Shown here piece after piece: positions 10,402 through 55,248 of a stretch of DNA of 64,000 nucleotides. The stretch's first letter is position 1. Each line of letters starts with the position of its first letter. This DNA is from CBDCVA01 sp965222935 [NCBI: Candidatus Latescibacterota bacterium] (lineage in GTDB: Bacteria; Latescibacterota; CBDCVA01). The notes beneath the pieces were generated by a model. It was not told the origin of the DNA and ran no database searches. It worked only from the letters and a program-made list of their open reading frames with translations. The stretch spans positions 248,001 through 312,000 of the forward strand of contig CBDCVA010000002.1 of NCBI GenBank assembly GCA_965222935.1. Direction: 5' to 3'. The position numbers and the translations under genes were made by a program.

Positions 10402-11015
10402 GCGTTATGGGACACTGAGGCGGAGGGGAGGCAGCCGTGGGCCCGCCAAGAGGCGCGGAAGACTCGCGCGTAGGACCAGGTTGAAACCCCTAGCATCGCG
10501 ACGGCGGCGCTCAACGCGGCCAGCTTGAAGGCCGGTGGGGCGTCAGCGGCGTAGGTGAAAAGCGCCAGTGCGGTGATGCCGATGCCCCACCTGCCGGCGG
10601 CAGTCGCCCGGAGGGGGACCCATCGCATCCGAGAAATGGTGAGCCATAGCGCTATCATCGCCCCGTCGCGGGCCAAGACGGCGACGAGAAACCACAGAGG
10701 AAAATCCGTCCAATAAGCCAGAAACAGCGCTAGTGCGGCGACGCATATCTTGTCCACCACGGGGTCGAGCAGGCGGCCAATGGCTGATCCCACCCCGCGG
10801 CGGTGGGCGAAATAGCCGTCGAGGGCATCAGTCGAAACTGCGATGAGGAGCAAAGCCAAGCCCTCCCGCATTCGATCCTGTGCCAGAAACCAGATGGCGG
10901 CCGGCACCAGCAGTAGACGCAAGAGGGTGATCCCGTTGGAGAGGGTAAAGATCTCCCTTGTCTCGCGCAAAGGAGTGCGATCCGGGATCGAGGCAGTGTC
11001 ACTCGTGGGAGTCAC
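10398..11015 (-). CDS. pgsA: CDP-alcohol phosphatidyltransferase (PgsA-like)
   Basis: Probable phosphatidylglycerophosphate synthase, making the head group for phosphatidylglycerol from CDP-diacylglycerol and glycerol-3-phosphate. The CDP-OH-P motif is seen at residues 63-88: D63, D66-G67, A70, G80, D84 and D88. The motif's usual Arg after Ala is His71, followed by two Arg. Four to six membrane helices in 205 residues. It overlaps recN by 4 nt upstream and rarA downstream. Substrate specificity (glycerol-phosphate versus serine or another alcohol) cannot be fixed from the motif alone. Confidence 0.85.
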   Translation of the reverse strand: MTPTSDTASIPDRTPLRETREIFTLSNGITLLRLLLVPAAIWFLAQDRMREGLALLLIAVSTDALDGYFAHRRGVGSAIGRLLDPVVDKICVAALALFLAYWTDFPLWFLVAVLARDGAMIALWLTISRMRWVPLRATAAGRWGIGITALALFTYAADAPPAFKLAALSAAVAMLGVSTWSYARVFRASWRAHGCLPSASVSHNA

Positions 11016-15944: not shown

Positions 15945-17182
15945 CTCGCCTCGCGTGCGGCGGACTCGGCCGGCTCCACCGGCCGCGTTGCCTCGACAGC
16001 CAAAGTGGCCTCACCGATCCGGAAACGCACGGCCACGCGGTCGCCGGTCGTCAGGGTTTTAGCATCGGTGACGAGCGAGCGTTCTGGCAACCGCTCTGTG
16101 AGGCTGTAGCCGCGTCGGAAGGGTAGGGCCGGGTCGAGAGCACCATGCTTGGCCGCCAGGGCCCGCCAACGCCCGTCCGTGTCTTTGATGCGTTGTGTCA
16201 CGGCCCGATAGGCGCTCTGCATCAGATCATCCACCCGCTGAACGCTTGCGTCGAGGCGCTCCGGGAAACGGCGCAGGCCGTAGCGACTAGCCAGAACATC
16301 CAGGGCTCCGGCGCTCTGATCCACCGAGGTAACGACCGCCTGCCGGGCGCGCTCCGTAAGACTGCTGACCCGGTCGCTCAGTTCCCTCCTATCGGGCAGG
16401 GCCATCTCGCAGGCGGCCGAGGGCGTCGGCGCGCGCAGGTCGGCGGCGAGGTCGGCGATGGTGAAGTCAATCTCATGGCCGACCGCGGAGATAATAGGGA
16501 TGCGGCTTTCATAGATCGCGCGGGCGACGATCTCCTCGTTGAAAGCCCACAGGTCTTCCACGGAGCCGCCGCCGCGCCCGACGATCAACAGATCCACCTC
16601 GCCCCAGGTGTTGAAGTCCTCGATGGCCCGCGCGATGTCCTCTGCGGCGCCTTCGCCCTGGACCCGCGTTGGCCGGAGAACCAGCGTGACCCACGGTGCT
16701 CGCCTGCCGGCCACGTCGATGATGTCCGCGATGGCGGCGCCGGAGGGCGAGGTCACCACGCCGACGCGCTCGGGAAAAGACAGCAAGGGCTTCTTGTGGG
16801 CTTCGTCGAAGAGGCCTTCGGCAGCCAGGCGCATCTTCAACCGATCAAAGGCCAGGGCCAGTTCACCTTCGCCTACGACGCGCATCGCCTTGATCTTTAG
16901 TTGGTAATTCCCCCTCGGAGCATACAGGTCTAAGCGGCCTCTAGCGATGACCTGCATGCCATTCTGCGGCGTGAAGAACAAGCGTATATTCTCTCGCTCG
17001 AACATGGCACAATGAAGTACGGCATTCTGGTCCTTGAGATCAAAATACATGTGACCCGAGCCCAGGATGTGCCGGAAGCCGGAGATCTCACCGGTGACGG
17101 CGAGCTCGTCGAACGCATCCCCGACCAGCGCGCGAAGCTCGGCCGTCAGTTCGGTCACGGTGTAGACGGGCAGTGCACTCAC
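15941..17182 (-). CDS. xseA: Exodeoxyribonuclease VII large subunit
   Basis: Catalytic subunit that degrades single-stranded DNA from both ends. N-terminal OB-fold: VTGEISGFRHILGSGHMYFD. Catalytic domain: RVGVVTSPSGAAIADIIDVA, LLIVGRGGGSVEDLWAFNEE and SAVGHEIDFTIADLAADLRA. A coiled-coil region (about 265-350) and the final RRGYSLTERLPE strand are present. Length 413 is normal. GTG 17182 overlaps the folD stop in a GTGA. Confidence 0.95.
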   Translation of the reverse strand: MSALPVYTVTELTAELRALVGDAFDELAVTGEISGFRHILGSGHMYFDLKDQNAVLHCAMFERENIRLFFTPQNGMQVIARGRLDLYAPRGNYQLKIKAMRVVGEGELALAFDRLKMRLAAEGLFDEAHKKPLLSFPERVGVVTSPSGAAIADIIDVAGRRAPWVTLVLRPTRVQGEGAAEDIARAIEDFNTWGEVDLLIVGRGGGSVEDLWAFNEEIVARAIYESRIPIISAVGHEIDFTIADLAADLRAPTPSAACEMALPDRRELSDRVSSLTERARQAVVTSVDQSAGALDVLASRYGLRRFPERLDASVQRVDDLMQSAYRAVTQRIKDTDGRWRALAAKHGALDPALPFRRGYSLTERLPERSLVTDAKTLTTGDRVAVRFRIGEATLAVEATRPVEPAESAAREAS

Positions 17183-18069
17183 GGCAGGGGCCCTTCACGG
17201 CGTTCGTAGCAGCGCACAGCGTTCTCCAGGACCATCGTGATGGTCATCGGGCCCACGCCACCGGGCACGGGCGTGATCCAGCTCGCCTTTTGAGCTACGC
17301 CCTCGAAAGCCACGTCTCCGACAAGGCGATAGCCCCGCTTGCGGGATGGGTCGATAACGCGATTTACCCCGACATCGATGACGGCGGCGCCCGGCTTTAC
17401 GCCTTCCGCGCGGATGTGACCCGGCACCCCGATCGCAGCGACGAGAATGTCGGCTCGTACGGTGTGACGCTCCATATCCCGCGTGCGCGAGTGACAGAGC
17501 GTCACCGTGGCGTTTCGCCCAGGGGCTTTACGCGAGAGCATGACGGCCAGAGGAGTCCCGACGATGTCGCTGCGCCCCGCAATGACGACGTTGGCTCCCT
17601 CAGGGGAAACCCCCACGGCTCCGAGCATCGCCAGGATACCCGCCGGAGTGCATGGCTCCAAGCAGGCATCACCGACGAGGAGCCGGCCCTGATTCGTGGG
17701 GTGCAGGCAGTCCACGTCCTTGTCCGGGTCTACGGCCTCGACGACGGCGCGACGGTCAATGCCCTCGGGCAAAGGCTGCTGCACGAGGAAGCCATCAATG
17801 GTCGGGTCACGGTTCAAGTGTTCCACTGCTGCGAGCACTGTCGTGAGGTCTGCATCGGTGGGCAGTCGCTTAGCCCGTGAGACGATGCCGACCGACTCGC
17901 ACGCGGCCAGCTTACGCTCCACGTAGACCATTGAGGCGGGGTCCTCACCCACCAGGATAGCCGCCAACCCCGGCGACCGTCGGCCAGAGTGGCGGCGGGC
18001 GATACGCTCCCGCAGACGCTCCGTAATTTGAGCCGCGATGGCCTTCCCGTCAATCACGGCCGCTCCCAC
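17179..18069 (-). CDS. folD: Methylene-THF dehydrogenase / methenyl-THF cyclohydrolase
   Basis: Bifunctional one-carbon enzyme supplying 10-formyl-THF, which PurH uses. Motifs: YVERKLAACESVGIVSRAKR with the catalytic Lys of the YxxxK pair, VQQPLPEGID near 98-107, cofactor loop VIAGRSDIVGTPLAVMLSRK and C-terminal PVPGGVGPMTITMVLENAV. GTG 18069 lies two bases after the ymdB stop. Length 296 is typical. Confidence 0.95.
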   Translation of the reverse strand: MGAAVIDGKAIAAQITERLRERIARRHSGRRSPGLAAILVGEDPASMVYVERKLAACESVGIVSRAKRLPTDADLTTVLAAVEHLNRDPTIDGFLVQQPLPEGIDRRAVVEAVDPDKDVDCLHPTNQGRLLVGDACLEPCTPAGILAMLGAVGVSPEGANVVIAGRSDIVGTPLAVMLSRKAPGRNATVTLCHSRTRDMERHTVRADILVAAIGVPGHIRAEGVKPGAAVIDVGVNRVIDPSRKRGYRLVGDVAFEGVAQKASWITPVPGGVGPMTITMVLENAVRCYERREGPLP

Positions 18070-18071
18070 CG

Positions 18072-18881
18072 TTAGAGCGCCTCGGTCTCGGGGACATCGG
18101 GGTCCCAGTCGCGGCGGACACGAACGATCTCTCGGGCCGCGCCGGTGTTCTCATCGATGTCGATCCACACGCCGCACAGCTTGATGTCACCCACCGCTGG
18201 GGACAGACGTTCGGGGATCGGGGTAAGAAACCGGCGAATAGCTCCCTCCTTGACCGCACCGATGACCGAATCGTGCGGGCCTGTCATGCCCGCGTCGGTG
18301 ATGTAGGCCGTCCCACCCGGGAGGACGCGCTCATCGGCAGTCTGTACGTGCGTATGCGTGCCCACGACGGCGCCGGCGCGCCCGTCGAGATACCAGCCCA
18401 TGGCGATCTTTTCGCTGGTGGCCTCGGCGTGAAAGTCCACGAGGACCGCGTCCGTGTGCCCTTCGAATTGCTCCATGATGCGATCAGCGGCCCGGAAGGG
18501 ACAGTCGATGTCGTGCATGAAGGTTCGCCCCTGGAGGTTCGCGACCCCGAGACGTAGACGATCGCGCGTCGTGAAAATCGCCGTCCCCGAGCCGGGGACG
18601 CCCGGCGGAAAATTGGCGGGGCGCAGCACCCGGGGAAGCCGCTCGATCTCGCGAAGCACCTCTTTGCGGTCCCAGACGTGATTGCCCGTCGTGATCACAT
18701 CCACATCGCTGGCGAAAAGCTCGTCGGCGAGCTTCTTAGTGATGCCGCGGCCGCTAGCGAGGTTCTCACCGTTGGCGACGACGACATCGGCCTCCCCCTC
18801 GACGCGCAGACGATGCACAAGGGCTGCGACCGCACCCCTGCCCGGCGCGCCGAACACATCCGCCACAAAGAGTATCTTCAC
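18072..18881 (-). CDS. ymdB: YmdB-family metallophosphoesterase
   Basis: Binuclear-metal phosphodiesterase of the TIGR00282 group. Bacillus YmdB hydrolyses cyclic nucleotides such as 2',3'-cAMP; that role is knowledge of the family, not shown here. Metal ligands are visible in LFVADVFGAPGR (Asp), NGENLASGRG (Asn/Glu), TTGNHVWDRKEV (Asn-His) and VVGTHTHVQTADERVLPGG (His-x-His). The GTG start is preceded by a GAGGG run. As in many bacteria it sits directly downstream of rny, suggesting joint RNA-turnover or nucleotide-signalling control. Confidence 0.9.
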   Translation of the reverse strand: MKILFVADVFGAPGRGAVAALVHRLRVEGEADVVVANGENLASGRGITKKLADELFASDVDVITTGNHVWDRKEVLREIERLPRVLRPANFPPGVPGSGTAIFTTRDRLRLGVANLQGRTFMHDIDCPFRAADRIMEQFEGHTDAVLVDFHAEATSEKIAMGWYLDGRAGAVVGTHTHVQTADERVLPGGTAYITDAGMTGPHDSVIGAVKEGAIRRFLTPIPERLSPAVGDIKLCGVWIDIDENTGAAREIVRVRRDWDPDVPETEAL

Positions 18882-18919
18882 CTAAACCCTCGCGGAAGCG
18901 CTAGAATCCCTGGGCGCAT

Positions 18920-20488
18920 CTACCGCGCGTAGCGTACGGTCCGACGCTCGCGGATGACCGTGACCTTGATCTGGCCAGGGTACTCCAGCTCGGCCTGGAT
19001 GCTATCGGCGACATCGGCGGCGAGCGTCTCGGTGCCCATGTCATCGACAGAATCGCAATCAACGATCACCCGGATCTCGCGTCCAGCCTGGATGGCGTAG
19101 CTCTTAGCGACACCGTCGAAGGAGTTGGCGACCGCCTCCAGCCTCTGAAGCCGCTTGACGTAGCTTTCGAGGGTATCGCGGCGCGCTCCGGGGCGAGCGC
19201 CGGAGATCGCATCGGCTGTCTGGGTGAGGATGGCGATGGGGTGCGTTGGCTCCTCGTCCTCGTGAAGCGCTGCAATGGCGTTGACCACGATGGGATTCTC
19301 GCCATAGCGGCGTGCCAACTCGATGCCGATCTCGGTGTGGGTGCCTTCCACCTCGTGGTCGGTCGATTTGCCAATATCGTGCAAGAGCCCCGCGCGACGC
19401 GCCAGAGCGGCATCCAAGCCCAGCTCGGCCGCTATCAGGCCGTTCAACCAGGCGACTTCCTTGGAATGGAGCAGGGCGTTCTGCCCGAAACTCGTCCTGA
19501 AGTGGAGCCTGCCCACGTAGTAGAGGAGCTTGGGGTGCATGTCGCTGATTCCAACGTCAACGGCCGTTTGACGGCCCGTCTCATGGATGCGCTCCTCGAC
19601 ATCCTGCTGGACCTTGGCAAAGATCTCCTCGATCCTCCCGGGGTGGATGCGGCCGTCGTCTACGAGGTTCTCCAGCGCCAGCTTCGCCACCTCGCGTCGG
19701 ATGGGATCGAAGCTCGAGAGGAGGACCGCCTCGGGAGTGTCATCCACGATGACGTCCACGCCGGTCAGCATTTCAAAAGCGCGGATGTTGCGACCTTCGC
19801 GCCCAATGATGCGGCCCTTCATCTCCTCAGTTGGCAACTGGACCACCGACACAGTCGATACGGTGGCGTGTTCGACCGCGCAGCGTGAGATGGCGTTGAT
19901 GACGACATCGCGCGCCTGACGATGACCCTCGGCGAGGGCCTCCTCGCGTATCTCGCGGACTAAGTGTTGCGCGTCCTCACGCGCATCGTGCTCAAACCGA
20001 TGCATCAACTCGACCCTGGCCTCGTCGGCGCTGAGATTTCCGATGCGCTCGAGACGCGATGTCTCCTCGGCGATGAGCTTCTCGACCTGCACCTCCCTGG
20101 CGGCCAACGCTTTCGAGCGTTCCTCAAACTCGTGCCCACGTTCGTCGAGCTTGATCTCTTTGGAGGTCAGCAGATCGACTTTCCGATCGAGCTTGCGTTC
20201 GCGGTCGCTCAGGCGCGACTCCGCGCGCTGTACGTTCACCTTCGCCTGACGCGTCTCCCGCTCGAAATTCTCTTTCTCGCGCAGCCACGCTTCTTTCGCC
20301 TCCAACTCCGCCGTCCTCTTGATCGTCTCGCATTCTCTGCGCGCTTCTTCGACCATGCGGCGGGCTGTAGCCACGGCGCCCTCGGCCCGCTGGCGGCTTA
20401 TCCAACTCGCCACCAGCCAGCCCGCACCAAAGATGGCTACACCTCCCACTGCAGCCGCCACCCAGGGGATGACCTGGCCCGCGTCCAT
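18920..20488 (-). CDS. rny: Ribonuclease Y
   Basis: Membrane-anchored endoribonuclease that starts mRNA decay. One N-terminal membrane helix (about residues 8-28), a long charged coiled coil (about 35-190), a KH domain with IIGREGRNIRAFEMLTGVDV, and the HD domain with AGLLHDIGKSTDHEVEGTH. The C-terminus GQIKVTVIRERR is typical. ATG 20488 follows GGAGG with good spacing. A 308-nt gap separates it from zapA, so it may have its own promoter even though the orientation is continuous. Confidence 0.95.
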   Translation of the reverse strand: MDAGQVIPWVAAAVGGVAIFGAGWLVASWISRQRAEGAVATARRMVEEARRECETIKRTAELEAKEAWLREKENFERETRQAKVNVQRAESRLSDRERKLDRKVDLLTSKEIKLDERGHEFEERSKALAAREVQVEKLIAEETSRLERIGNLSADEARVELMHRFEHDAREDAQHLVREIREEALAEGHRQARDVVINAISRCAVEHATVSTVSVVQLPTEEMKGRIIGREGRNIRAFEMLTGVDVIVDDTPEAVLLSSFDPIRREVAKLALENLVDDGRIHPGRIEEIFAKVQQDVEERIHETGRQTAVDVGISDMHPKLLYYVGRLHFRTSFGQNALLHSKEVAWLNGLIAAELGLDAALARRAGLLHDIGKSTDHEVEGTHTEIGIELARRYGENPIVVNAIAALHEDEEPTHPIAILTQTADAISGARPGARRDTLESYVKRLQRLEAVANSFDGVAKSYAIQAGREIRVIVDCDSVDDMGTETLAADVADSIQAELEYPGQIKVTVIRERRTVRYAR

Positions 20489-20796
20489 TCGAGATCCCTC
20501 CTAAGCGTTCACTGCAGCACCACGAGACCCCGCGCACCCACCCCTGGTGTCCTAGCCCAGTTCGAAAGCGCGCCGCCCAGGTCACGCGACCCTCCAAGCG
20601 GCCGTCAGACCCAGCACTGTATTTAGCGCCATGGACCACTCGCCCACGACGGATGACGCAAGGCTATGGCAATTCGCTGCGTTCGCTGTCATCACATTGG
20701 TTCATACTATCAGACGAGTAACGGTCGTTCGTCACCAGCCTCGTGCCGCGACGGGACTATCGGTGCCCAACGCAGCCGAGCGGCTTAAGCGAGAGA
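20489..20796. other. Intergenic gap between zapA and rny
   Basis: 308 nt without a credible protein. Read on the minus strand it contains AT-rich islands (GATAGTATGAACC and GCTAAATACAGT) that could hold -10 elements for rny, but I find no matched -35. In several phyla the 6S RNA gene lies next to zapA; I could not assemble the long-hairpin 6S structure by eye, so this is only a positional hint. Confidence 0.4.
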
Positions 20797-21120
20797 TCAA
20801 CGCCTCGCTCCTTCGGTCAAACTCTCGCCATCGTCGCCGATGATCTCCTCGTCCAGACGTTCACAGAGCGACACCAGCTTTGTCTCCAGCTCGCGCTGGG
20901 CCAACTGATCGTCTTCGCGCTCACGAAAGAGCTCATCGGCGATGTTCAGCGCCGCCAATACGGCGACGGTGGTGCCCGCTTTCACTGAGCTGCGGGCAGC
21001 GCTCTCCCGCATCTTGCCATCGACGTAAGCGGCCACTTCGCGGATGTAAGCCGGGTCGGCGTCGCTCTTGATGGCGTGCTCCGTCCCGAAGATCGTGACC
21101 ACCACGTTATCGTCGCTCAC
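20797..21120 (-). CDS. zapA: Cell division protein ZapA
   Basis: Small FtsZ-binding protein that bundles protofilaments at the Z-ring. It begins VVVTIFGTEHAIKSDADPAY, has YVDGKMRESA and VAVLAALNIADELF as the ZapA core, and ends in a coiled coil. Its 107 residues are typical. The start overlaps the upstream coiled-coil gene by 4 nt. Position between pheT and rny matches the order seen in several phyla. Confidence 0.88.
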   Translation of the reverse strand: MSDDNVVVTIFGTEHAIKSDADPAYIREVAAYVDGKMRESAARSSVKAGTTVAVLAALNIADELFREREDDQLAQRELETKLVSLCERLDEEIIGDDGESLTEGARR

Positions 21121-21461
21121 GCCGAATCTCCATGTGCACTGACGATGGGGCGGACCCGACCGCCAGCGTTCCCATCCGGCGATGAGACGCCCGCTCTCTC
21201 GATCTGAGCGAGCAGTGCCTCCAGTTCCCGCCGGATGGTGTGCACCTTCGCCTCACGAATCGCTGCGCGTTCTTCTGAGGCGGCCCGAAGAGCACGGTTC
21301 ACCTCGCGCAACTCTCGTACGACGGCCTCACTAGCGAAAAGTCGCACCTTGAATTCCGCAATCTGTTCGCGGCTCTGGTCCACCTCGCGCTGCAACGTGC
21401 GAAGCCTTCCCACCGCCTGAACCACACGCGCTTCCAGTCCGCCGATTTGCTCGCCAAGCAT
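21117..21461 (-). CDS. Small coiled-coil protein (ZapB-like position)
   Basis: A 114-residue, almost entirely helical, charged protein: QIGGLEARVVQAVGRLRTLQ, then heptads up to about residue 92, then a short Gly/Pro-rich tail. No catalytic motif and no signal peptide. I choose ATG 21461 (GAGG seven bases upstream, within the end of pheT); GTG 21464 is possible. Translationally coupled to zapA, it may be a division or FtsZ-ring partner like ZapB, but this rests on context and coiled-coil character only. Confidence 0.7.
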   Translation of the reverse strand: MLGEQIGGLEARVVQAVGRLRTLQREVDQSREQIAEFKVRLFASEAVVRELREVNRALRAASEERAAIREAKVHTIRRELEALLAQIERAGVSSPDGNAGGRVRPIVSAHGDSA

Positions 21462-21470
21462 CACAGATCC

Positions 21471-23855
21471 TCAAATGCCGCGCAGTTTCGCTCCCGTCCG
21501 CTCGGCGGAAGCGACGATCCGAGCGACCGCTTCATCCACCGTCGCCTCGGCGAGCGATCCGGCCGGCGAGCGGAACTGCAGGGCAAAAGCCAGGCTCTTC
21601 TTGTCCGGAGGCACCTGCGGCCCCGTGTAATGGTCAAACAACTCCACGGCCTCTAAGATTTCACCCCCGTGGGTGCGGATGAGATCCAACAACTGTTCAC
21701 AGGTGACATCGCGACCTACGACAAACGCCACATCCCGGAAGACGGGCGGGAACTTGGGCAGCGGGTTGAAGCGTCGCTCGCGACGCGCTAGCTGGGCCGC
21801 CCGGTCCCAGTCCATCACGAAGCCGAACAGCGGCTCCTTGACCCTGCGTCGCTGGAGTGCGGACCGGTTCAACGCGCCGGCGGTCACCAGCGGCGCGCCT
21901 TCAGCGGTGATGACGGCGGAGCGGAGCGGCTCGAACATCGGGTGTGCTTCGGGCTGCCACGATCCCCCCTCGATGCCCAGGGCGTCGAGCAGGGCCTCCA
22001 CGGCGCCCTTCACGTCGAAGAAACCCAACGGTGTCGGCGGACGCGACCAGCCTCCGGCCGACCGTCCCGCGATGATCGCGCCCAACTCATAGCGCTCGCT
22101 CACGTGGCCGTCGGAGTCCTCGCGGGCGAAGACCACGCCGAGATCAAAGATCTGGAGATCGGTGAGGTGGCGGTGAAGATTATATCGCGCCACCTCGACC
22201 AGACCCGGCAGGAGCGAAGGTCGCAGCACAGGCATCTCACGCCTTGATCCCTCGCCTGCCCAAAGCCGGGGACCTTCGAGCCCGCAAGCATCAAGCAGTT
22301 CCGCGCCGTTCAGAGAACTGGTCATCACCTCCGTGAAGCCGAGGCGTACCATCAACTCAACGGCAGCCGCGCGTTCCTGGTAGGGGTCGCGCGCAGGGGC
22401 CACTGGCAGCGCGCAGGGCCGCTGGCGGGAAGCGATTCGGTCATAGCCATACAGTCGCGCAATTTCCTCGACGAGGTCCGCCTCACACTGGAGGTCGCGC
22501 CGGAAGGAGGGCGGACGCACGCGCAGCGCTCCGTCGGCCGCATCGACCGCACAGCCCAACCGTTCGAGCATGTCGTGCATCTGCGCCCGGCGCAGCCGTG
22601 TGCCTAGCTGTGCGTTGACGCGAGAAGGGCGCAGGCCGACCTTGGATTGACGTTCCCGCCGAGGCCAAGCGTCAGCCGCACCGCAAGCCACTCGACCTCC
22701 GGCGACTTGGTGGATTAACTCTGCCGCTCGCGCAAGGGCGATCTCGGGTCCGTGAGGATCGACGCCACGCTCGAAGCGGTAGGAACTCTCGGTGGCGAGA
22801 CCCAGTGCGCGGCTCGTACGGCGGATCGACGCTGGTCGAAAGACCGCTCCTTCGAGCGCGATGCGGCTGGTCTCCGCCGTCACCTGAGTCGGCACGCCGC
22901 CCATGATTCCCGCCAGCGCTACCGGTTCGTCTCGATCTGCGATGACGAGCGTTGTGGGTGCAAGGGTACGCTCGACGTCATCCAGGGTGGTCAGACGCTC
23001 GCCGGGTCGGGCGTCACGCGCCTCCAGATGGGCGCCGCCCAGGCGGTCTAGGTCGAAGGCATGCAGGGGATGTCCCAGTTCGAGCAAGACGAAATTGGTG
23101 ATGTCCACCACGTTGTTGATCGGCTTCTGCCCCGCAGCCAAAAGCCGGCTCACCAGCCACCCCGGTGACGGACCGACGCGGACGCCCTCGACGACGCGCG
23201 CCATGTAGCGCGGGCAGGCATCGTGATCGCCGACCGCAACGCTGATCTCCTCCTCGACGGGCGGCCCCTGTTCGGACGGCTCGGGACGCGGCGGTCGGAA
23301 CCGGGCGTCTAGCGCAGCGGCCACATCGCGCGCGATCCCAACGACGCTCAGGCAATCGGGTCGGTTGGGGGTGATCTCAAGCTCGAGCACCTCGTCCGCC
23401 AGGTCCAGGACCTCGGTGATGGGCTGGCCGGGCCGCGCGCCGTCGCCCAAGGCGAGGATCACGTCTCCCTCGACGTCCACACCCATCTCCGCGGCCGAGC
23501 AGAGCATGCCCATCGAAGCGACGCCGCCGATCGTTTCCGCGTTGATCCGTTGGCCATCGGGCAGGCACGCGCCGGGCGTAGCCACCGCGACAGTCATCCC
23601 AACGGCCAGGTTGGGGGCGCCGCAGACGATCTGTGCCGAGCCATCCCCGAGCCCCACCTGAGCGATCCGCAAGCTGGGATTGGACGGATGCACGCCAACC
23701 TCGCGCACTTGCCCCGCGAGGATGCCGGCGTAAGCCTCCTGGCGCTGCTCGATGCGCTCGGTCTCGAACCCCAGTCGCAGAAGAAGCTCGACCAGCGCCT
23801 CCACCGAAGGGCAGGGTGCGACGTATTCGGCGAGCCAGCGACGCGGCAGCTTCAT
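21471..23855 (-). CDS. pheT: Phenylalanyl-tRNA synthetase beta subunit
   Basis: Beta chain of the (alpha-beta)2 synthetase, carrying editing and tRNA-binding domains. N-terminal OB/EMAP-like tRNA-binding region starts at about residue 40; the B3/B4 editing domain includes VDITNFVLLELGHPLHAFD; B5 includes RRAQMHDMLERLGC and LVEEIARLYGYDRI; the C-terminal FDX-ACB domain ends with KSLAFALQFRSPAGSLAEAT. Length 794 is standard. Preceded by AGAAGGA; 13 nt after pheS. Confidence 0.95.
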   Translation of the reverse strand: MKLPRRWLAEYVAPCPSVEALVELLLRLGFETERIEQRQEAYAGILAGQVREVGVHPSNPSLRIAQVGLGDGSAQIVCGAPNLAVGMTVAVATPGACLPDGQRINAETIGGVASMGMLCSAAEMGVDVEGDVILALGDGARPGQPITEVLDLADEVLELEITPNRPDCLSVVGIARDVAAALDARFRPPRPEPSEQGPPVEEEISVAVGDHDACPRYMARVVEGVRVGPSPGWLVSRLLAAGQKPINNVVDITNFVLLELGHPLHAFDLDRLGGAHLEARDARPGERLTTLDDVERTLAPTTLVIADRDEPVALAGIMGGVPTQVTAETSRIALEGAVFRPASIRRTSRALGLATESSYRFERGVDPHGPEIALARAAELIHQVAGGRVACGAADAWPRRERQSKVGLRPSRVNAQLGTRLRRAQMHDMLERLGCAVDAADGALRVRPPSFRRDLQCEADLVEEIARLYGYDRIASRQRPCALPVAPARDPYQERAAAVELMVRLGFTEVMTSSLNGAELLDACGLEGPRLWAGEGSRREMPVLRPSLLPGLVEVARYNLHRHLTDLQIFDLGVVFAREDSDGHVSERYELGAIIAGRSAGGWSRPPTPLGFFDVKGAVEALLDALGIEGGSWQPEAHPMFEPLRSAVITAEGAPLVTAGALNRSALQRRRVKEPLFGFVMDWDRAAQLARRERRFNPLPKFPPVFRDVAFVVGRDVTCEQLLDLIRTHGGEILEAVELFDHYTGPQVPPDKKSLAFALQFRSPAGSLAEATVDEAVARIVASAERTGAKLRGI

Positions 23856-23868
23856 GGCTTAAATCCTT

Positions 23869-24876
23869 CTACGAGAACTGTTCGATGAACCGGAGATCAT
23901 TCTCCCAAAGGAGTCGGATGTCATTGATCCCGAACCGGATCATCGTGATCCGGTCCATCCCCATGCCGAAGGCAAAGCCCGACCACACCTCAGGGTCGTA
24001 CCCCACGGCCTGTAAGACCTTCGGGTGCACCATCCCTGCGCCGGAGATCTCAAGCCAGCCCGCACCGCCGCAACTCAGGCAACCGGTACCCTGACAAGTG
24101 AGACAGGCCAAGTCGTACTCAGCGCCCGGCTCGACGAACGGGAAGTAGCTGGGCCTGAAGCGCACGCGCGTGCGGCCCCCAAAGAAGCGGTTGGTGAAGG
24201 CCTCGATGGTGCCCTTGAGGTCGGCGAAGCTGACGCCGCGATCCACGTACAACCCTTCAACCTGGTGGAAAACCGGGAAGTGCGTGGCATCGGGGGTATC
24301 TTCGCGGTAGCAGCGACCCGGCGCGATAACCCGCACCGGCGGCTGAGTGGATTCCATGACGCGAATCTGAACGGGCGATGTGTGGGTGCGCAGAACGACG
24401 CCGGGCTCGAGGTAGAAAGTGTCTTGGAGATCGCGCGCGGGGTGGTCCTCGGGGACGTTGAGAGCCCCGAAATTGTAATAATCTGTCTCCACCTCGGGCC
24501 CTTCGGCGACGCGAAAACCCATCTCGCCGAAGATCCCGACGATCTCCTCGGTGACCAGCGTGAGCGGGTGCTTACGGCCCACGCGCGGAGTGAGACCTGG
24601 CAGGGTGACGTCCAGCGCCGCACCGTCAGTGCGCTGCCGCTCCCTCGCGCGTGCCAGACCAGCTTCGATGGAAACCTTCGCCCGCTGCACGGCCTTGCCC
24701 ACGTGCGGTCGTTCCTCGGCGGAGAGCCGTCCGATCGCGCGCAAAGCAACCTGAAGCGGGCTCTTCTTGCCCAGATGGGCGACCCGAGCCTCCTCAAGCG
24801 CTTGGGGCGAACCGGCCGCAGCGAAGTCGGCGTCCGCGGCGGCGATGAGGGCCTGTAGACCCTCGATTTCCTTCAA
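23869..24876 (-). CDS. pheS: Phenylalanyl-tRNA synthetase alpha subunit
   Basis: Catalytic alpha chain. Class II motif 2 region FPVFHQVEGLYVDRGVSFAD, active-site TSPVQIRVM and motif 3 GFAFGMGMDRITMIRFGIND are present. A Cys-rich insertion, CLTCQGTGCLSCGG, near 265-280 could bind zinc and is seen in a subset of PheS. Two in-frame TTG codons could start it (24897 and 24876). I prefer 24876, five bases after GGGAGG, giving 335 residues. The ribosome site lies immediately after a strong hairpin and U-tract, so expression is likely attenuated. Confidence 0.93.
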   Translation of the reverse strand: MKEIEGLQALIAAADADFAAAGSPQALEEARVAHLGKKSPLQVALRAIGRLSAEERPHVGKAVQRAKVSIEAGLARARERQRTDGAALDVTLPGLTPRVGRKHPLTLVTEEIVGIFGEMGFRVAEGPEVETDYYNFGALNVPEDHPARDLQDTFYLEPGVVLRTHTSPVQIRVMESTQPPVRVIAPGRCYREDTPDATHFPVFHQVEGLYVDRGVSFADLKGTIEAFTNRFFGGRTRVRFRPSYFPFVEPGAEYDLACLTCQGTGCLSCGGAGWLEISGAGMVHPKVLQAVGYDPEVWSGFAFGMGMDRITMIRFGINDIRLLWENDLRFIEQFS

Positions 24877-24883
24877 CAGCGCC

Positions 24884-24952
24884 TCCCAAAAACACAAACG
24901 CCCGCCCTCAGGCGTCAGTCGACCGACACCTGAGGTGAGGCGAGCGCAAAGG
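24884..24952 (-). terminator. Hairpin plus U-tract between rplT and pheS (terminator or attenuator)
   Basis: On the minus-strand RNA an inner 13-bp stem with two G-U pairs and a UCGA loop (24908-24937) is extended, after a 4-nt bulge, by an outer 7-9 bp stem (24942-24950 with 24899-24907). It is followed at once by UUUGUGUUUUUGG (24898-24886). That is the form of an intrinsic terminator. Because pheS begins only about 10 nt further on, it probably attenuates pheST or uncouples it from the ribosomal-protein genes. Confidence 0.75.
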
Positions 24953-45652: not shown

Positions 45653-46183
45653 TCAAGAGAGCGCCATGTCAATCAAGTGCTGGATCTCGTCGATGGTGAG
45701 CCGCCCCTGGGTATCGTCCATGATCCCGGCGACCTCCTTCTTCGCCTCCGCTAGCCGCCCTGCCGCGCGACCGCGAGCGATGATCTCCCGACAGCGCACG
45801 GGACGCGCCTTCCAGTCGCCCACCTCGATGAACTGATCGTTGAAGAAGACGAAGACTGGGATAGCCAATCCCCCGTTGCTCAGATAGCGCTCCATGACAT
45901 CGAGTTGGTCATCCCTACCAATGATGCGCATGTGGAGGTTAGGGCTGGCGGCGGCCATCCTCGCCACAATGGGGAACTGCCGAGCCACATCACCGCACCA
46001 CGCCTCGCCGATGGCGAGGATGTGGACGGCCCGCTCCACGCCCCCCAAAAAGCCTAGGTCCGCCTCCGTCAGGGTGACGGCCTTGTAATTGGCGCGCATC
46101 CGTTCGACGTTCGTGTCGTCCGACGCAAGCCACGCTTCCCACTCGAGGCCGCTCTCATATCGGGCTTTCAGATTTAGGGCCAT
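45653..46183 (-). CDS. Thioredoxin-like protein with a single active-site cysteine
   Basis: Thioredoxin-fold protein of the Thioredoxin_9-like type: HILAIGEAWCGDVARQFPIV holds one Cys where thioredoxins have CxxC, then MRIIGRDDQLDVMERYL and the cis-Pro region GLAIPVFVFFNDQ. Single-Cys WCGD is usual in this subgroup. Function unknown, possibly bacillithiol- or protein-thiol-linked. ATG 46183 has GAAGGA nine bases upstream, better than ATG 46192. No signal peptide. Confidence 0.75.
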   Translation of the reverse strand: MALNLKARYESGLEWEAWLASDDTNVERMRANYKAVTLTEADLGFLGGVERAVHILAIGEAWCGDVARQFPIVARMAAASPNLHMRIIGRDDQLDVMERYLSNGGLAIPVFVFFNDQFIEVGDWKARPVRCREIIARGRAAGRLAEAKKEVAGIMDDTQGRLTIDEIQHLIDMALS

Positions 46184-46226
46184 CCGTCTCATTCCTTCCG
46201 GGGTTAGAGGTGTAGGGGACAGGTCA

Positions 46227-47051
46227 TCATGCGTTCACGGGCGCCTCCAGTGAGGCGGACGCGAGGACCTCGCGGGAGGGCCAGCGCGCGAGGGTCGCCG
46301 CCCGCGGGGTCATCTCCAGATAAGTGTTGTGCTTCACCCAGTCACCGAGCACGGCCAGCCAGCCCCCCTCGAGCGGCAACAGAAGCGGCTGATGCAAGTG
46401 TCCCAGGACGACGCCTGTGACGCCGCGGGCGAATACCTCGCGCGCGAGAGCTGGGTACCAGCCGTCCATGGCAAAGCGATCCTTTGCCCCGAAGTCGCGG
46501 CTGGACCGCGCGGTCCAATGGGCCAGGCGAGCGCCCCAGTCGGGGTGTAGCAGGCGGAACAAGCGTTCGTTGACGGGATGGCGGAGGAACCACTTCAGCA
46601 ACCTGTAACCCCGGTTGGCGCGGTTGACGCCGTCGCCGTGGTGAAGGAAAACGCGTTGTCCGAAGTGCTCGACCGAGGCGGGCTGACGTGAGATGGCCAG
46701 GCCCATCTCGTCACGCAGGAAATCGCCGAGCCAGTAGTCGTGGTTGCCGCCAATGAGCATCACTCGAAGCCCCGATTCGGCGAGCCGTGCGAGTTCGGCG
46801 ACCGCTCGCGCCCCCGCCCGCGGCACAACGTGTCTGTACTCGAACCAGAAATCAAAGAGGTCACCGACGATGTAGAGCGCCTGGGTCGTTGGCGGCAGAT
46901 GCCTCAAGAAGCTCAGGAACCTCTGGGCCTTGGCGCGCTCCTCGGCGGGGGATTCGGCGCCGAAGTGGAAATCCGAGACAAAGAAGACGCGTGGCTCATC
47001 CGAATCGGCCGTCGTGGGCGTGTGGTCACTTTGGCTTTCGCCGCAGCACAT
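46227..47051 (-). CDS. UDP-2,3-diacylglucosamine diphosphatase-like phosphoesterase (LpxH family)
   Basis: Calcineurin-like phosphoesterase that would release lipid X in lipid A synthesis. Metal ligands: FFVSDFHFG (DxH), YIVGDLFDFWFEY, LIGGNHDYWLGD, HHGDG and VLGHLHQP. The DLFDFWFEY block and extra helical segment (about 145-185) match the LpxH-like group seen in Bacteroidetes-type bacteria. ATG 47051 lies within TATATAATG and has no ribosome site; the first 20 residues are polar and unconserved. No other lpx genes nearby. Confidence 0.82.
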   Translation of the reverse strand: MCCGESQSDHTPTTADSDEPRVFFVSDFHFGAESPAEERAKAQRFLSFLRHLPPTTQALYIVGDLFDFWFEYRHVVPRAGARAVAELARLAESGLRVMLIGGNHDYWLGDFLRDEMGLAISRQPASVEHFGQRVFLHHGDGVNRANRGYRLLKWFLRHPVNERLFRLLHPDWGARLAHWTARSSRDFGAKDRFAMDGWYPALAREVFARGVTGVVLGHLHQPLLLPLEGGWLAVLGDWVKHNTYLEMTPRAATLARWPSREVLASASLEAPVNA

Positions 47052-49864: not shown

Positions 49865-50545
49865 ATGCCGACACGAACCTATCGCCGCATCACGCGGCGT
49901 GAGATCAAGCAGGACCGGTTTGTCACCTTCCTGTTCACGGCATGGTACTGGTGCACGGCAAACCTTCGATACATTGGCCTGGGTGGGGCAGGGGTTGTTG
50001 TGGTCGCGGTCGTGGTGCTCGCGATGAGCTCCCACCGGCACGAGCAGCGCCGCCTGGCGATGGAGAACCTGGGCGAAGCCGTCATCGCCCAAACTGAGAG
50101 CAGAGTAGAGGAGGCCGCGAGCCTCTATCAGCGCGTTACCAGCGAGTACTCGGGTACGCCGAGTGCCGCTGAGGCATGGGTGCAGTTGGGCAATCTGCGG
50201 TTCAAGCAGAGCCGCTATGACGAGGCCCGCGATGTCTTCAAAGGTTACCTCGATGCCTTCGGCGACGGAGACGGTGTCCTTGGCTATGCGGCGACCAATG
50301 GCGTGGCCGCTTGCTGGGAGGAGCAGGGCGACTTTACGTCCGCGGCCGATATCCAGCTAGAGTACGCCGACAGGCGCAGTGACTCGCCCTTTGCGTCCTG
50401 GGCGCTCCTAGAGGCCGCGCGCTGCCTCGATGAAGCGAACCGGCCAGAGGAGGCCAGGCGCGCGCTCGAACGCGTCCGAGATGGATATGCCGATAGCCAG
50501 GCTGCCATTCTCGCCAAGCAGGAGCTCTTGGCCTACCTGAGGTAG
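49865..50545 (+). CDS. Membrane-anchored TPR protein (YfgM/BamD-like)
   Basis: 226 residues: basic cytoplasmic head, one membrane helix (about 43-57, VVVVAVVVLAMSS) and a periplasmic TPR array with AQTESRVEEAASLYQRVTSE, SAAEAWVQLGNLRFKQSRYD and FASWALLEAARCLDEANRPE. The topology resembles YfgM, a chaperone-linked SecYEG partner; BamD-like lipoproteins are excluded by the absence of a lipobox. ATG 49865 follows GAGGAAAGG. Overlaps the next gene by 1 nt. Confidence 0.75.
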   Translation: MPTRTYRRITRREIKQDRFVTFLFTAWYWCTANLRYIGLGGAGVVVVAVVVLAMSSHRHEQRRLAMENLGEAVIAQTESRVEEAASLYQRVTSEYSGTPSAAEAWVQLGNLRFKQSRYDEARDVFKGYLDAFGDGDGVLGYAATNGVAACWEEQGDFTSAADIQLEYADRRSDSPFASWALLEAARCLDEANRPEEARRALERVRDGYADSQAAILAKQELLAYLR

Positions 50546-51381
50546 TGCGGCCCGTGGTTGACTTGGCCGCCGCGGCCGACTTCGTCCGGGCCAACGGGAC
50601 GGATGTTGAGCGGGCCCGGCTCGCGCACATCCTCGAAAATACCCCCCTGCCGCCAGCCATCCAGACAGCCATCACCATGAGCCATAACGGCGATGGTGGG
50701 TGGCGGGAAGTCCCCGGTTACGGCGGCGAGACGCGGTTAGATTGCACCATCAGTACGGTGACCTATAGTCTCTCTGCGATGCGGCTGCTTCTGGCCCATG
50801 GACTGGAGGCGAGCCGTGCAACCCGCATGACCGCCTTCTTCCTCTTCCACTCGCAGAGCTCGGACGGCTCGTGGCGGGAACCGGAGCTACTTAGCGCCTT
50901 CGAGCCTCCTCCATGGATGGCGCCCGATCGCCCTGCCAACGCCGTATGGCTCACGGCGGGCGCCGTCTCTTACTTGCGCCGCACGCGCTGGCGCGATCAC
51001 AGGCAGGTCAAGCTCGGGCAGCGCTGGCTAAGCGAGCGATGGATGCAGGGTAGGGGATTCCCCGGCTACGTGCATGCCACGATCTTCGGCCTCGCCGCCT
51101 TCGCGGGCTTGGATCCCAATATCGTCCAGGGTTGCGTCGCGGACCTGATGGACCGCTTCAACGAGATCGATCCCTACGAGCTCGCACGGCTCCTCGAAAA
51201 CGCACACACGGCAAGTCTCACCACCGATCACACGCTCGTGGCTCGCACCTGGGAGCGCCTGGCGGCTACTCAGGGCCTCAACGGTAGCTGGGCACTACCC
51301 GAGGGATGGGAAAAGCATCTCGTCGATCTCCCCCTTTGGGTTCTTCGGGCTCACCGACGCCTGGGTCACCTCGAGACGTGA
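50545..51381 (+). CDS. Alpha/alpha-toroid (prenyltransferase/squalene-oxidase repeat-like) protein
   Basis: 278 residues with repeats typical of the terpenoid-cyclase/prenyltransferase toroid: HNGDGGWREVPGYGG near 49-63, FHSQSSDGSWREPELL near 92-107 and GLNGSWALPEGWEKHLVD near 250-267. No DxDD or DDxxD catalytic motif is visible and it has no signal peptide, so it is probably not a cyclase; binding or an unknown enzyme role is open. GTG start overlaps the TPR stop by 1 nt. Confidence 0.6.
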   Translation: MRPVVDLAAAADFVRANGTDVERARLAHILENTPLPPAIQTAITMSHNGDGGWREVPGYGGETRLDCTISTVTYSLSAMRLLLAHGLEASRATRMTAFFLFHSQSSDGSWREPELLSAFEPPPWMAPDRPANAVWLTAGAVSYLRRTRWRDHRQVKLGQRWLSERWMQGRGFPGYVHATIFGLAAFAGLDPNIVQGCVADLMDRFNEIDPYELARLLENAHTASLTTDHTLVARTWERLAATQGLNGSWALPEGWEKHLVDLPLWVLRAHRRLGHLET

Positions 51382-51544: not shown

Positions 51545-51572
51545 ATGTCGCATAAGAAGTATTCTGTAAACT
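51545..51572 (+). other. Candidate dif site (XerC/XerD recombination)
   Basis: 28 bp made of ATGTCGCATAA (XerC-like arm), GAAGTA (6-bp centre) and TTCTGTAAACT (XerD-like arm). The right arm differs by one base from the Bacillus dif arm TTATGTAAACT; the left arm shares CGCATAA with E. coli dif. Arm and spacer lengths are exactly 11-6-11. It lies in non-coding DNA where gene orientation converges. The centre differs from the common TGTATA. Confidence 0.6.
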
Positions 51573-51645: not shown

Positions 51646-51797
51646 CTAGCGCAGTATGTCCACGCCAAAGCACTTCACATCAACGATGGCGCGATCAACG
51701 GCGGCGCGAATCACATCGGAGCGGGTACAGCCCATTCCAATCTCTGCAGCGATCCCATCCAAGTTCTCTTAGGCAACGTGGCCGAGGCACCCTGCAC
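51646..51797 (-). pseudogene. Broken ribbon-helix-helix (CopG/ParD-like) gene
   Basis: Minus strand, stop at 51648-51646. The open part reads ENLDGIAAEIGMGCTRSDVI followed by RAAVDRAI, the helix-turn-helix half of a ribbon-helix-helix DNA-binding protein. A stop (TAA, 51771-51769) lies just before it. Adding one G at AAG-AG (51768) joins it to GTG 51797 and gives SATLPKENLDGIAA, including the expected beta-strand end. Either an antitoxin/regulator remnant or an intact small gene with a sequence error. No toxin partner is seen. Confidence 0.5.
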
Positions 51798-52228
51798 TAC
51801 CAGTTCCAGCCTCCGTCATCGGTCCACCGTCGGGGCTTCTCCCGGAGAATCCCCAGGTGCTGAAGAACGAGCCCCGTCAAGCTGCGTCCATCGCTGGTGA
51901 AAGCACCTTGATCACGGCAGTCTGGATCAGGACGAAACTCAAGGCGATATGCCCTAGCCGCATCCGCGTAACGAAGCCCCGTCATGTCCTCGAAGACGAC
52001 GATGGAATACTCGAAGGTGGAGACGTCCGCCGTGAGTCTTGAAAACTCGGCCTCCTGCTCTTCGGAGATGTCAAGACACGGCGGTGCGATGTAGGTCTCT
52101 TCCAGCGGATCAAGCAGGACCACGGCGTTATCGGGCATCGGCTGCATCGTCCCGATCCCTAGGCCAATCATCGCCAAGAGAACGACCGTCACGAGGACCG
52201 TACCGAGCACTCTGAAGACTCTCTTCAT
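51797..52228 (-). CDS. Small exported or membrane-anchored hypothetical protein
   Basis: 143 residues. N-terminal hydrophobic segment RVLGTVLVTVVLLAMIGLGI after a basic start is a signal peptide or anchor. The mature part has PDNAVVLLDPLEETYIAPPC, two further Cys and a compact C-terminus REKPRRWTDDGGWNW. GGGGAG lies seven bases before ATG 52228. Codon use is less GC-rich than neighbours. I do not recognise the family. It abuts the ribbon-helix-helix remnant and lies in the decayed stretch, so it may be acquired. Confidence 0.6.
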   Translation of the reverse strand: MKRVFRVLGTVLVTVVLLAMIGLGIGTMQPMPDNAVVLLDPLEETYIAPPCLDISEEQEAEFSRLTADVSTFEYSIVVFEDMTGLRYADAARAYRLEFRPDPDCRDQGAFTSDGRSLTGLVLQHLGILREKPRRWTDDGGWNW

Positions 52229-52412: not shown

Positions 52413-52589
52413 ATGCACAAATCCCGTCCCGTTGGCATCGATGTCAGCGCACAAACCTTAGACGTGGCCCTGGCGGGCCCGGTCCCACGCCGGACGAGCG
52501 CCACGTTTGACAACACCCCCGAGCGAGAGGCCTGTTTGGCACCTTTCGAGGACACTACGCTGGTGTACGCGGCAAGAGCCGAGGGATGA
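52413..52589 (+). mobile_element. Truncated IS110-family transposase
   Basis: ATG 52413 with AAGGAGG upstream encodes PVGIDVSAQTLDVALAG (residues 6-22), the first DEDD motif of IS110 transposases, then SATFDNTPEREACLAPFE, which matches the following family segment. After about 47 residues the similarity ends and TGA follows at 52587. The catalytic middle and the Serine-rich C-terminal domain are absent, and no continuation is seen before leuS. A relic; any element ends were not recognised. Confidence 0.75.
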
Positions 52590-52758
52590 AGCCGGACGAG
52601 AGTTTCCGAACCGATGGCTCTTCACGCGTGGTACAGCGAGACAACTCCGCGATCCCCACATCCGCCATTGCATTGATGCGGGAACTTTGCCATGCAGGCT
52701 AGAAGAGTCCCCGCTCGGGCGTCGAGGCATCTTCGCCTCTGCAAACCTCAGTAGTTCG

Positions 52759-55248
52759 TCACACGACGAAATTGACGAGTCGTCGGGGCACAACGACCGT
52801 GCGGCGGGGTTCCCGCCCACCCAGGTGAGCCTTCACGTTCTCCTCTGCCCTAGCGCGGGCAACGAGCTCTTCCTCCGCAATGTCTGTGGAGACCTCCAGG
52901 CGCGCGCGCACTTTACCGTTCACCTGGACGGGCACCGTGATGAGTTCGACCGTGGCGAGCTGGGGGTCGTAGCTTGGCCAGGATGCGAGGAAGAGGCTCT
53001 GGGTGTGGCCCGCGCGCGCCCAGTACTCCTCAGCCAGGTGCGGCGCGAACGGTGCCAGGAGGAGAAGGAAGGCCGAAGCGGTCTCGGGATCGATGCGGCC
53101 CCGTCCATCCTCGGCTCCGCTGACCTCGTTGACGAACTCCATCATCCGCGCGATGGTCGTGTTGAACCGGAAGCCCTCAATACCCCAGGTGACTTGCTGG
53201 ACCAACCTGTGCCGCCGCCTGACGAGCGCCTGCGTCGCCTCCGATGGCTCATCGAGACTGCGACCGACCAGACCGCGCACGCGCCCCAAAAAGCGCGCCA
53301 CGCCCTCGATGCCGCGTTCGTTCCATTCGGCGTGCTGCTCAGGGGGGCCAACGAAGAGCCCATAAAGGCGCACGCTGTCGGCTCCGTAGCGCTCGACCAA
53401 GGGGTCGGGGCTGATTACGTTGCCCTTGGACTTGCTCATCTTCGCCCCGTGCAGGTAGATCATTCCTTGGTTGAACAGACGCGTGAAGGGCTCGTCGAAG
53501 GGCAAATGACCCAGATCGTAGAGTACTTTGATGAAGAAGCGAGCGTACAGAAGGTGCAGGATCGCGTGCTCCACGCCGCCGATGTACTGGTCCACGGGCA
53601 GCCATGCATCGATACGCTCGGGGTCCCAGGGGCGCTCTGTATTGTGAGGATCGGCGTAACGTAAGAAATACCAGCACGAGCCTGCCCACTGGGGCATCGT
53701 ATCGGTTTCGCGTCGCGCTGGCCCGTCGCACGCCGGACAGACGGTGTTAACGAACTCGGGGATGGTCGCTAGGGGCGATTCGCCGGTGCCGCTAGGCTGA
53801 TAGCCTTCGACCTCGGGCAACAGAACCGGTAAATCCTCTTCGGGCACAGGCACTTCGCCGCACTCGTCGCAGTAAACGATGGGAATAGGCTCGCCCCAGT
53901 AGCGCTGGCGGGAAAAGATCCAGTCCCGCAGCTTGTACTGGACCTGCGCTTCGCCCCCGCCGCGCTCGGTGAGCCACGCGACGATTCGCGCCGCCCCCTG
54001 CTCCGAATCCAGGCCAGTGAAAGGACCCGAACGGACCATGACGCCGGACGCCTCGTAGGCCGCCTCCAGGGCCCCCTGCCCCTCCGGGGCGTCCGGAGGA
54101 GCGATGACTTGCCTGATTTCCAGGCCAAAAGTTCGGGCGAACTCAAAATCCCGCTGGTCGTGCGCGGGCACAGCCATGATCGCGCCCGTCCCGTAGCCTA
54201 TCAACACGTAGTCGGAAATCCAGATGGGGAGCCGCTCGCCGTTGACGGGGTTTATCGCGTAGCTGCCCAGAAAGACGCCCGTCTTCTCACGGCCGGCGGA
54301 GGTCCGGTCGACCTCCGAAATGCGCTGCGCCTCTTCGACGTAGCGGGCGACTCGATCCCTTCGCTCAGGGGCCGTTAGGCATTCGACCAGCGGATGTTCG
54401 GGCGCGAGGACCATGTACGTGGCTCCGAAGAGGGTATCGGGCCGCGTGGTGAAGACGGGCAGCTCTACTTGCTCCGCATCATCGGGAGGTAGCGCCACGA
54501 AGCGCACCAGCGCGCCTTCGCTGCGCCCAATCCAGTTGGTCTGCATCGTCTTGACGTGCTCGGGCCACTTGAGCTTTTCCAGATCCCGCAGAAGCCGTTC
54601 CGCATAGCGGGTGATGCGGAGCATCCACTGCACGAGCTGGCGCTTGGTCACCGGCGTCTCGCACCGCTCACAGCGATCTGCGACAACCTCCTCGTTGGCC
54701 AGGCCGGTCTGACAACTCGGACACCAGTTGATGGGCGCCTTCTGCCGATAGGCCAGGCCCGCCTTGTACATTTGGAGAAAGATCCACTGCGTCCAGCGGT
54801 AGTACTCGGGGTTCGAGGTGTCGATCTCCCGGTCCCAGTCGTACATGGTGCCGAGTTGTTCAAACTGGCGCTTCATCACCGCCACGTTCCGGGCCGTGCT
54901 CGCGCGCGGATGGACGCCCCTGGTGATGGCATCGTTCTCGGCCGGGAGCCCGAAGACATCCCAGCCCATCGGATGCAAGACGTTGTGACCCTGAAGGCGC
55001 TTGTAGCGCGCCCAGACATCGCTGATGGTGTAATTCCGCCAATGGCCGACGTGCAGCGCCTCGCCGGATGGGTACGGGAACATGACGAGACAGTAGTACT
55101 TCGGCCGCGAGTCATCATCGGGCGCGCGATGGAGTCCCCATTCGGACCACTGCTGGCGCCACTTGGACTCCACCTCGGTGTGATCGTAATCGCGGCTGAA
55201 TTGAGGGACCGGGACACTCTCGGTCATCGTACCGTCGCTCTGGCTCAT
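52759..55248 (-). CDS. leuS: Leucyl-tRNA synthetase
   Basis: Class I synthetase with HIGH-type motif [17 protein letters not shown], editing domain including [20 protein letters not shown], and the KMSKS loop [16 protein letters not shown] zinc-type insertion is suggested by CPSCQTG/CERCETP and a second by CDECGE and CPACDG. 829 residues is standard for bacteria. Preceded by asnS 45 nt upstream. Confidence 0.96.

What the first reader, a model, noticed from the sequence alone, without database searches (positions are those of the whole stretch)
51545..51572. A dif-like XerCD site where the gene orientation converges
The 28 bp read ATGTCGCATAA-GAAGTA-TTCTGTAAACT. Arm and centre lengths are exactly those of dif (11-6-11); the right arm is one base from the Bacillus arm and the left arm shares CGCATAA with E. 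coli. It is in the window's only decayed non-coding stretch, next to an IS110 relic. Genes left of it (38-51 kb) are mainly plus and all genes right of it to 64 kb are minus, as expected where two replichores meet. If true this is the chromosome terminus; an alternative is an attachment site for a Xer-using mobile element.
Basis: partly seen in the sequence, partly recalled or inferred. Interest (0 to 1): 0.75.

Follow-up and report, generated by a model that had tools for sequence, protein, structure and literature searches.

The report
Chromosome terminus recombination site beside leuS
This 28-base stretch is very probably the site where an uncultured bacterium's recombinases untangle joined chromosomes before division; it is a familiar kind of site, but it carries one unusual base and sits beside the same gene as in distant relatives.

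Summary
The 28-mer is real and not a chance match. A profile of 19 dif sites from other genomes scores it 34.2 bits; the next place in the window scores 8.9, and 200 simulated windows reach at most 10.3. Location supports it independently. In a KSB1-containing phylum, 17 of 30 leuS loci examined have dif just downstream of leuS, in the window's orientation; in a second, small phylum 7 of 8 dif regions hold leuS within 1.8 kb; in the window the distance is 1.19 kb. The link is not universal: starting from dif, only 2 of 12 regions of the KSB1-containing phylum hold leuS. In two of three relatives with long contigs the leuS-linked dif lies 15 and 49 bp from the GC-skew maximum; in the third it is 12 kb off. 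The oddity is TTCTG instead of TTATG in the XerD arm; the same change stands at an orthologous dif of one Acidobacteriota-phylum genome. Ordinary in kind; the shared dif–leuS neighbourhood is the interesting part. No whole genome is held, so uniqueness was not testable.

The parts
51545..51572 (+). dif site (28 bp)
   Evidence: PWM 34.2 bits, null maximum 10.3; 1187 bp beyond the leuS stop, in the same orientation as 17 of 17 leuS-linked sites among the 30 leuS loci examined in the KSB1-containing phylum
51545..51555 (+). left arm ATGTCGCATAA (inferred XerC site)
   Evidence: CGCATAA shared with sites of G046, G048, G049, G054; GTCGCATAA with the site of L007
51556..51561 (+). 6-bp centre GAAGTA
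   Evidence: same spacing as the 19 profile sites; differs from GATATA (G054, G096, L007) at 2 of 6
51562..51572 (+). right arm TTCTGTAAACT (inferred XerD site), one base off TTATGTAAACT
   Evidence: TTATGTAAACT in the G011-phylum sites and several sites of the KSB1-containing phylum; same A-to-C at the orthologous dif of G336
52759..55248 (-). leuS, the gene that neighbours dif in relatives
   Evidence: TIGR00396, 1047 bits; dif adjacency in relatives
50545..51381 (+). last gene of the left side, 278 aa, weakly like the squalene-hopene cyclase C-terminal domain, converging on dif
   Evidence: PF13243, 28.8 bits
51382..52758 (.). intergenic stretch holding dif; contains a 143-aa ORF (51797-52228, minus) without a Pfam or PHROG match
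17179..24897 (-). folD-ymdB-rny-pheT-pheS cluster; genes of it lie within about 10 kb of dif in several relatives, but about 27-34 kb away here

Best explanation
This is the chromosomal dif site of an uncultured bacterium, at the junction of its replichores. XerC binds the left arm and XerD the right arm; the two recombinases, with FtsK, exchange strands across the 6-bp centre and resolve chromosome dimers at division. Sequence, spacing and shared location are shown; recombinase binding, FtsK dependence and activity are inferred from the known XerCD/dif system. The TTCTG variant is most likely a tolerated, lineage-specific base in the XerD arm.
For: Profile score far above the null. It differs at 4 of 28 positions from the dif-like site of the TA06 locus L007, ACGTCGCATAAGATATATTATGTAAACT. 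In the KSB1-containing phylum, 17 of 30 leuS loci examined have a site 0.11-0.34 kb beyond the end of the leuS match, and G072 and G076 add two; in the G011 phylum 7 of 8 dif regions hold leuS with dif 0.54-1.75 kb beyond it; window 1.19 kb. Controls: 0 of 28 leuS loci of the TA06 phylum exceed 15 bits (highest 8.5; 6 of the 28 have under 400 bases beyond leuS), and 2 of the 80 leuS loci do (L017, of the G011 phylum itself, and L007, 8 kb away). GC-skew maximum 49 bp from dif over 400 kb in G080 and 15 bp over 245 kb in G088. In the window, fourfold-site coding skew of right minus-strand genes exceeds that of left minus-strand genes by 0.077 (one-sided permutation p 0.030) and left plus exceeds left minus by 0.064 (p 0.024), as a replichore switch predicts (which corrects). 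Relatives carry XerC/D-type genes (20 of 20 genomes with at least 2 matches to the XerD model) and the FtsK gamma domain (15 of 16).
Against: All 19 profile sites have TTATG where this has TTCTG, though I picked them by eye partly for that. Complementary pairs in positions 7-12/17-22 are 4 of 6, while Kono 2011 asks for more than four. Skew flips with gene strand elsewhere in the window and has a higher cumulative maximum at 11,011; the fourfold tests rest on 46 genes and two related contrasts, uncorrected. In G036 the skew maximum is 11.8 kb from dif, and in G088 only 44 kb lie beyond dif, nearly flat. KOPS bias is not specific. Starting from dif, only 2 of 12 regions fetched from the KSB1-containing phylum hold leuS. 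13 of 30 leuS loci there show no adjacent site (4 of them have under 150 bases beyond leuS); the 30 were the best leuS matches of 72 genomes, not a random draw, and the three weakest positives score 17.2, 13.8 and 10.3 bits. G011-phylum sites occur in both orientations relative to leuS (4 and 3), and 2 of its 10 genomes gave no dif match. No close relative and no whole genome available.
Confidence: 0.87

Rival explanations
1. A dif that has lost function: it once was the lineage's dif, the XerD arm has decayed (TTATG to TTCTG), and a working dif now lies elsewhere.
For: The changed base is the same in all 19 profile sites, which were chosen partly for it; only 4 of 6 inner pairs remain (criterion); the surrounding 1.4 kb holds little recognisable coding sequence.
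Against: Only one right-arm base departs from TTATGTAAACT and CGCATAA is intact. The same substitution stands at the orthologous dif of G336, whose genome gives no other match to the pattern.
Confidence: 0.09
2. Attachment site left by an integrated Xer-using mobile element (IMEX).
For: IMEX sites can have a divergent XerD arm with a good XerC arm (PMC5357621, passages); an IS-like fragment was claimed nearby.
Against: No phage-specific or integrase family among the flanking ORFs scanned (PHROGs matched only the protease, by a family of unknown function, and weakly the phosphoesterase), no direct repeats in the intergenic stretch, no second site in the window, and a location shared with other phyla.
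Confidence: 0.03
3. Chance resemblance.
For: Found by eye by a reader scanning raw sequence for anything of note.
Against: 34.2 bits against a maximum of 10.3 in 200 simulations, plus the leuS location.
Confidence: 0.01

Closest known systems
XerCD/dif chromosome dimer resolution (E. coli, B. subtilis)
   Same: 11-6-11 layout, CGCATAA left core, right arm TT-TGTAAACT, intergenic, at a change of gene strand
   Different: A-to-C at the third base of the right arm; centre GAAGTA; activity not shown. E. coli and B. subtilis letters are recalled, not fetched
   Same: Just downstream of leuS, on the opposite strand
   Different: 0.11-0.34 kb from leuS there, 1.19 kb here; TTATG there, TTCTG here; other genomes of the phylum have dif away from leuS
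dif of the G011 phylum (L017, 'uncultured bacterium')
   Same: 0.54-1.75 kb downstream of leuS in 7 of 8 regions; right arm ends TGTAAACT
   Different: Left core C[CT]CATAA; orientation relative to leuS varies (4 and 3)
IMEX / pdif sites
   Same: Same kind of dif-like architecture
   Different: No element, no second site in the window, location shared with other phyla

Membership tests
XerCD/dif | 28 bp, 11-6-11, with recognisable XerC and XerD arms | tested here: met
XerCD/dif | More than four complementary pairs in positions 7-12/17-22 (Kono 2011 criterion) | tested here: not met
   4 of 6 pairs, counted; criterion. A prediction filter of one paper, not a demonstrated requirement of the system
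XerCD/dif | Location at the GC-skew switch (terminus) | tested here: inconclusive
   Window skew +0.040/-0.054 and fourfold tests p 0.030 and 0.024 agree, but the window-wide maximum is at 11,011; leuS-linked dif of relatives at the switch in 2 of 3 long contigs, 12 kb off in 1
XerCD/dif | Single copy in the chromosome | not testable with these tools
   No genome held; single in the 64-kb window
XerCD/dif | xerC, xerD and ftsK in the same genome | not testable with these tools
   No genome held; in relatives 20 of 20 and 15 of 16
XerCD/dif | Polar KOPS motifs pointing to it | tested here: inconclusive
   Window 10:2 for GGGNAGGG but control motifs 393:239; relatives 32:27 in 19 short regions and 65:32 in three long contigs, without controls
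XerCD/dif | XerC/XerD binding and recombination | not testable with these tools
   needs an experiment
IMEX attachment site | Flanked by or within a mobile element, with a second dif-like site | tested here: not met

The most novel reading that the evidence does not exclude
In a group of mostly uncultured phyla, dif has kept one ancestral gene neighbourhood (leuS on one side; pheST-rny-ymdB-folD on the other in some genomes) across phylum-level divergence, so that the terminus is an anchored landmark rather than the most fluid part of the chromosome. In this lineage, and independently in an Acidobacteriota-phylum genome, XerD tolerates the same A-to-C change at an otherwise constant arm base.
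Probability: 0.45. Interest if true: 0.55.

Novelty: new member of a known kind. Interest (0 to 1): 0.4.

Why it matters
It marks the likely terminus of a lineage without a held genome and suggests that leuS can be a signpost to dif in some uncultured phyla, which would help to orient and close metagenome-assembled genomes. If the neighbourhood is truly ancestral, it is a case where the terminus stayed put over very deep time; the TTCTG variant is a natural test of how strictly XerD reads its arm.

Tried and rejected
Whole-genome skew and uniqueness: no genome held. KOPS polarity: suggestive for GGGNAGGG, but control motifs are biased too and relatives are mixed; not counted. Raw GC skew in the window follows gene strand, so I compared genes at fourfold sites; the first run had two of 46 genes out of frame, and one search corrects it (R- against L- from 0.081, p 0.023 to 0.077, p 0.030; L+ against L- from 0.051, p 0.060 to 0.064, p 0.024). 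Idea that the motif belongs to a xer gene's promoter: the gene next to the L017 site is methyltransferase-like. Idea that the motif is a leuS-linked element rather than dif: disfavoured because dif occurs without leuS within about 10 kb in L115-L118 and L123-L125 (in G096, the genome of L123, leuS is 11.5 kb away on the same contig), and leuS occurs without it in 28 of 28 TA06-phylum loci. TTCTG in viral contigs: 2 matches, which I judged by eye to be chance. IS110 relic: no Pfam support. Placing the organism: PNPase best 57-58% to the KSB1-containing phylum, 52-53% to the G011 phylum, 45% to the TA06 genome G005; leuS full-length best 62% in the TA06 phylum, 59% in Bacillota, 56% in the KSB1-containing phylum (where two partial matches reach 60%). 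No close relative found; phylum left open.

Full report
What is there. The window holds, at 51545-51572 on the plus strand, ATGTCGCATAA-GAAGTA-TTCTGTAAACT in the 1.4-kb gap between a plus-strand gene (50545-51381) and leuS (52759-55248, minus). Genes from 38 to 51 kb are mainly plus (two minus genes at 45653-47051); the eight genes I scanned to the right are minus.

Is it more than chance. Searching two phyla for a loose dif pattern gave some match in 45 of 82 genomes and in 8 of 10 genomes. Many matches in the larger phylum are chance, as the control counts show. From these lists I picked by eye 19 distinct 24-mers with TTATG and good arms. The profile made from them, which does not include the window, scores the site 34.2 bits; the second-best place in the window is 8.9, and 200 order-2 Markov simulations reach at most 10.3. 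The nearest site I saw, in the TA06 locus L007, differs at 4 of 28 positions.

Independent evidence from location. In the phylum of G011 (L017, titled 'uncultured bacterium'), 8 of 10 genomes gave a dif match. Seven of the eight dif regions hold leuS, with dif 0.54-1.75 kb beyond the end of the leuS match; the eighth (L114) shows no leuS in 6.7 kb on one side and 2.5 kb on the other, where its contig ends. In the KSB1-containing phylum (82 genomes, 72 with a leuS match at the threshold) I examined the 30 leuS loci returned, which are the best-scoring ones. Fifteen have a site above 15 bits and two more (13.8 and 10.3 bits) have one in the same place; all 17 lie 0.11-0.34 kb beyond the leuS match and in the orientation seen in the window. 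Of the 13 without, 4 have under 150 bases beyond leuS. Going the other way, of 12 dif regions that I chose from that phylum (L115-L126), only 2 (L121 of G072, L122 of G076) hold leuS, so the link is common there but far from universal; the strict pattern I started from also misses several of the leuS-linked sites.

Controls for that location. 0 of 28 leuS loci in the TA06 phylum exceed 15 bits; 6 of the 28 have under 400 bases beyond leuS. Of the 80 leuS loci, many cut by contig ends, only L017 and L007 exceed 15 bits, L007 being 8 kb away on the other side of leuS. In seven regions (L115-L118, L123-L125) dif follows genes of the pheST-rny-ymdB-folD cluster, which in the window lies 27-34 kb to the left, pointing the other way. 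In L121 leuS and rny-ymdB flank the same dif.

Is that location the terminus. On a 400-kb stretch of G080 the cumulative GC-skew maximum is 49 bp from dif; on 245 kb of G088 it is 15 bp, though only 44 kb lie beyond it and are nearly flat; on 400 kb of G036 it is 11.8 kb away. In 16 of 20 regions of 9-20 kb around dif in relatives, skew is higher on the left than on the right; in two of these one side is very short (L120 0.5 kb, L126 1.4 kb). In the window, skew is +0.040 left and -0.054 right over 10 kb, but gene strand alone makes such flips, and the window-wide maximum is at 11,011. At fourfold sites, right minus genes exceed left minus genes by 0.077 (p 0.030), left plus genes exceed left minus genes by 0.064 (p 0.024), and right minus exceed left plus by 0.013 (p 0.39): the pattern a replichore switch predicts, with 8, 19 and 19 genes and no correction for multiple tests (which corrects two out-of-frame genes). 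GGGNAGGG points toward dif 10 to 2, but other G-rich motifs also do, less strongly (393:239 over 56); relatives show 32:27 in 19 short regions and 65:32 in the three long contigs, without controls. I do not count this.

The odd base. All 19 profile sites have TTATG (partly by my choice). A strict search for TTCTG in 396 genomes of the phylum of G021 (whose record L039 is titled Acidobacteria) gave one match, in G336. Of 40 genomes of its family, 11 others have a TTATG site. The G336 site has the same upstream genes, parA (81-84% identical, in 9 of 11) and parB (68-74%, in 10 of 11), and its genome gives no other match to the pattern. So the same substitution occurs at an orthologous dif; whether it works there is not shown. 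By the pair rule of Kono 2011 (PMC3025954; I read the abstract, part 1 of 6 of section 3, and passages) the window site has 4 of 6 inner pairs and narrowly fails.

Mechanism. By homology with XerCD/dif, XerC and XerD bind the arms and, with FtsK, recombine the two copies in a chromosome dimer. The 20 relatives tested each have at least two matches to the XerD model, 18 of them with one over its curated cut-off, and 15 of 16 an FtsK gamma domain. For the window's organism these genes are not seen because no genome is held.

Rivals. A mobile-element site is unsupported. Such sites can have a divergent XerD arm (PMC5357621, passages), but here 10 of 11 right-arm bases match TTATGTAAACT. Loss of function remains possible because of TTCTG. 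Chance is excluded for practical purposes.

Literature. One search (leuS, 'dif site', terminus, synteny; at least three terms) listed 10 of 60 papers; from titles and the starts of abstracts, none describes a dif-leuS link. That is weak evidence that it is unreported. E. coli and B. subtilis dif letters are recalled.

Noticed in passing
L185-L196 (phylum of G021, family of G336; Acidobacteria by the title of L039): dif-like sites lie just downstream of parA-parB (families scanned for L185 only; homologues in 9-10 of the 11 others), genes usually found near the origin (recalled). In G446 the cumulative GC skew rises up to the site, which lies 3.7 kb from the contig end, as expected at a terminus.
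   Followed up: partly
L115-L118, L123-L125; window 17179-24897: Genes of the pheST-rny-ymdB-folD cluster flank dif in several genomes of the KSB1-containing phylum; the cluster is present, pointing away from dif and 27-34 kb from it, in the window.
   Followed up: partly
window 29391-31597: A comEC-like gene is split over two overlapping frames (Competence domain in both), suggesting a frameshift or an assembly error.
   Followed up: no
window 52759-55248: leuS is closest, full length, to TA06-phylum (62%) and Bacillota (59%) proteins, while PNPase is closest to the KSB1-containing phylum (57-58%, where leuS reaches 56%): possible horizontal transfer of leuS.
   Followed up: partly
window about 52413-52590: Peptide resembling by eye the start of an IS110 transposase (GIDVSAQTLDVAL), but without a Pfam match.
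   Followed up: partly
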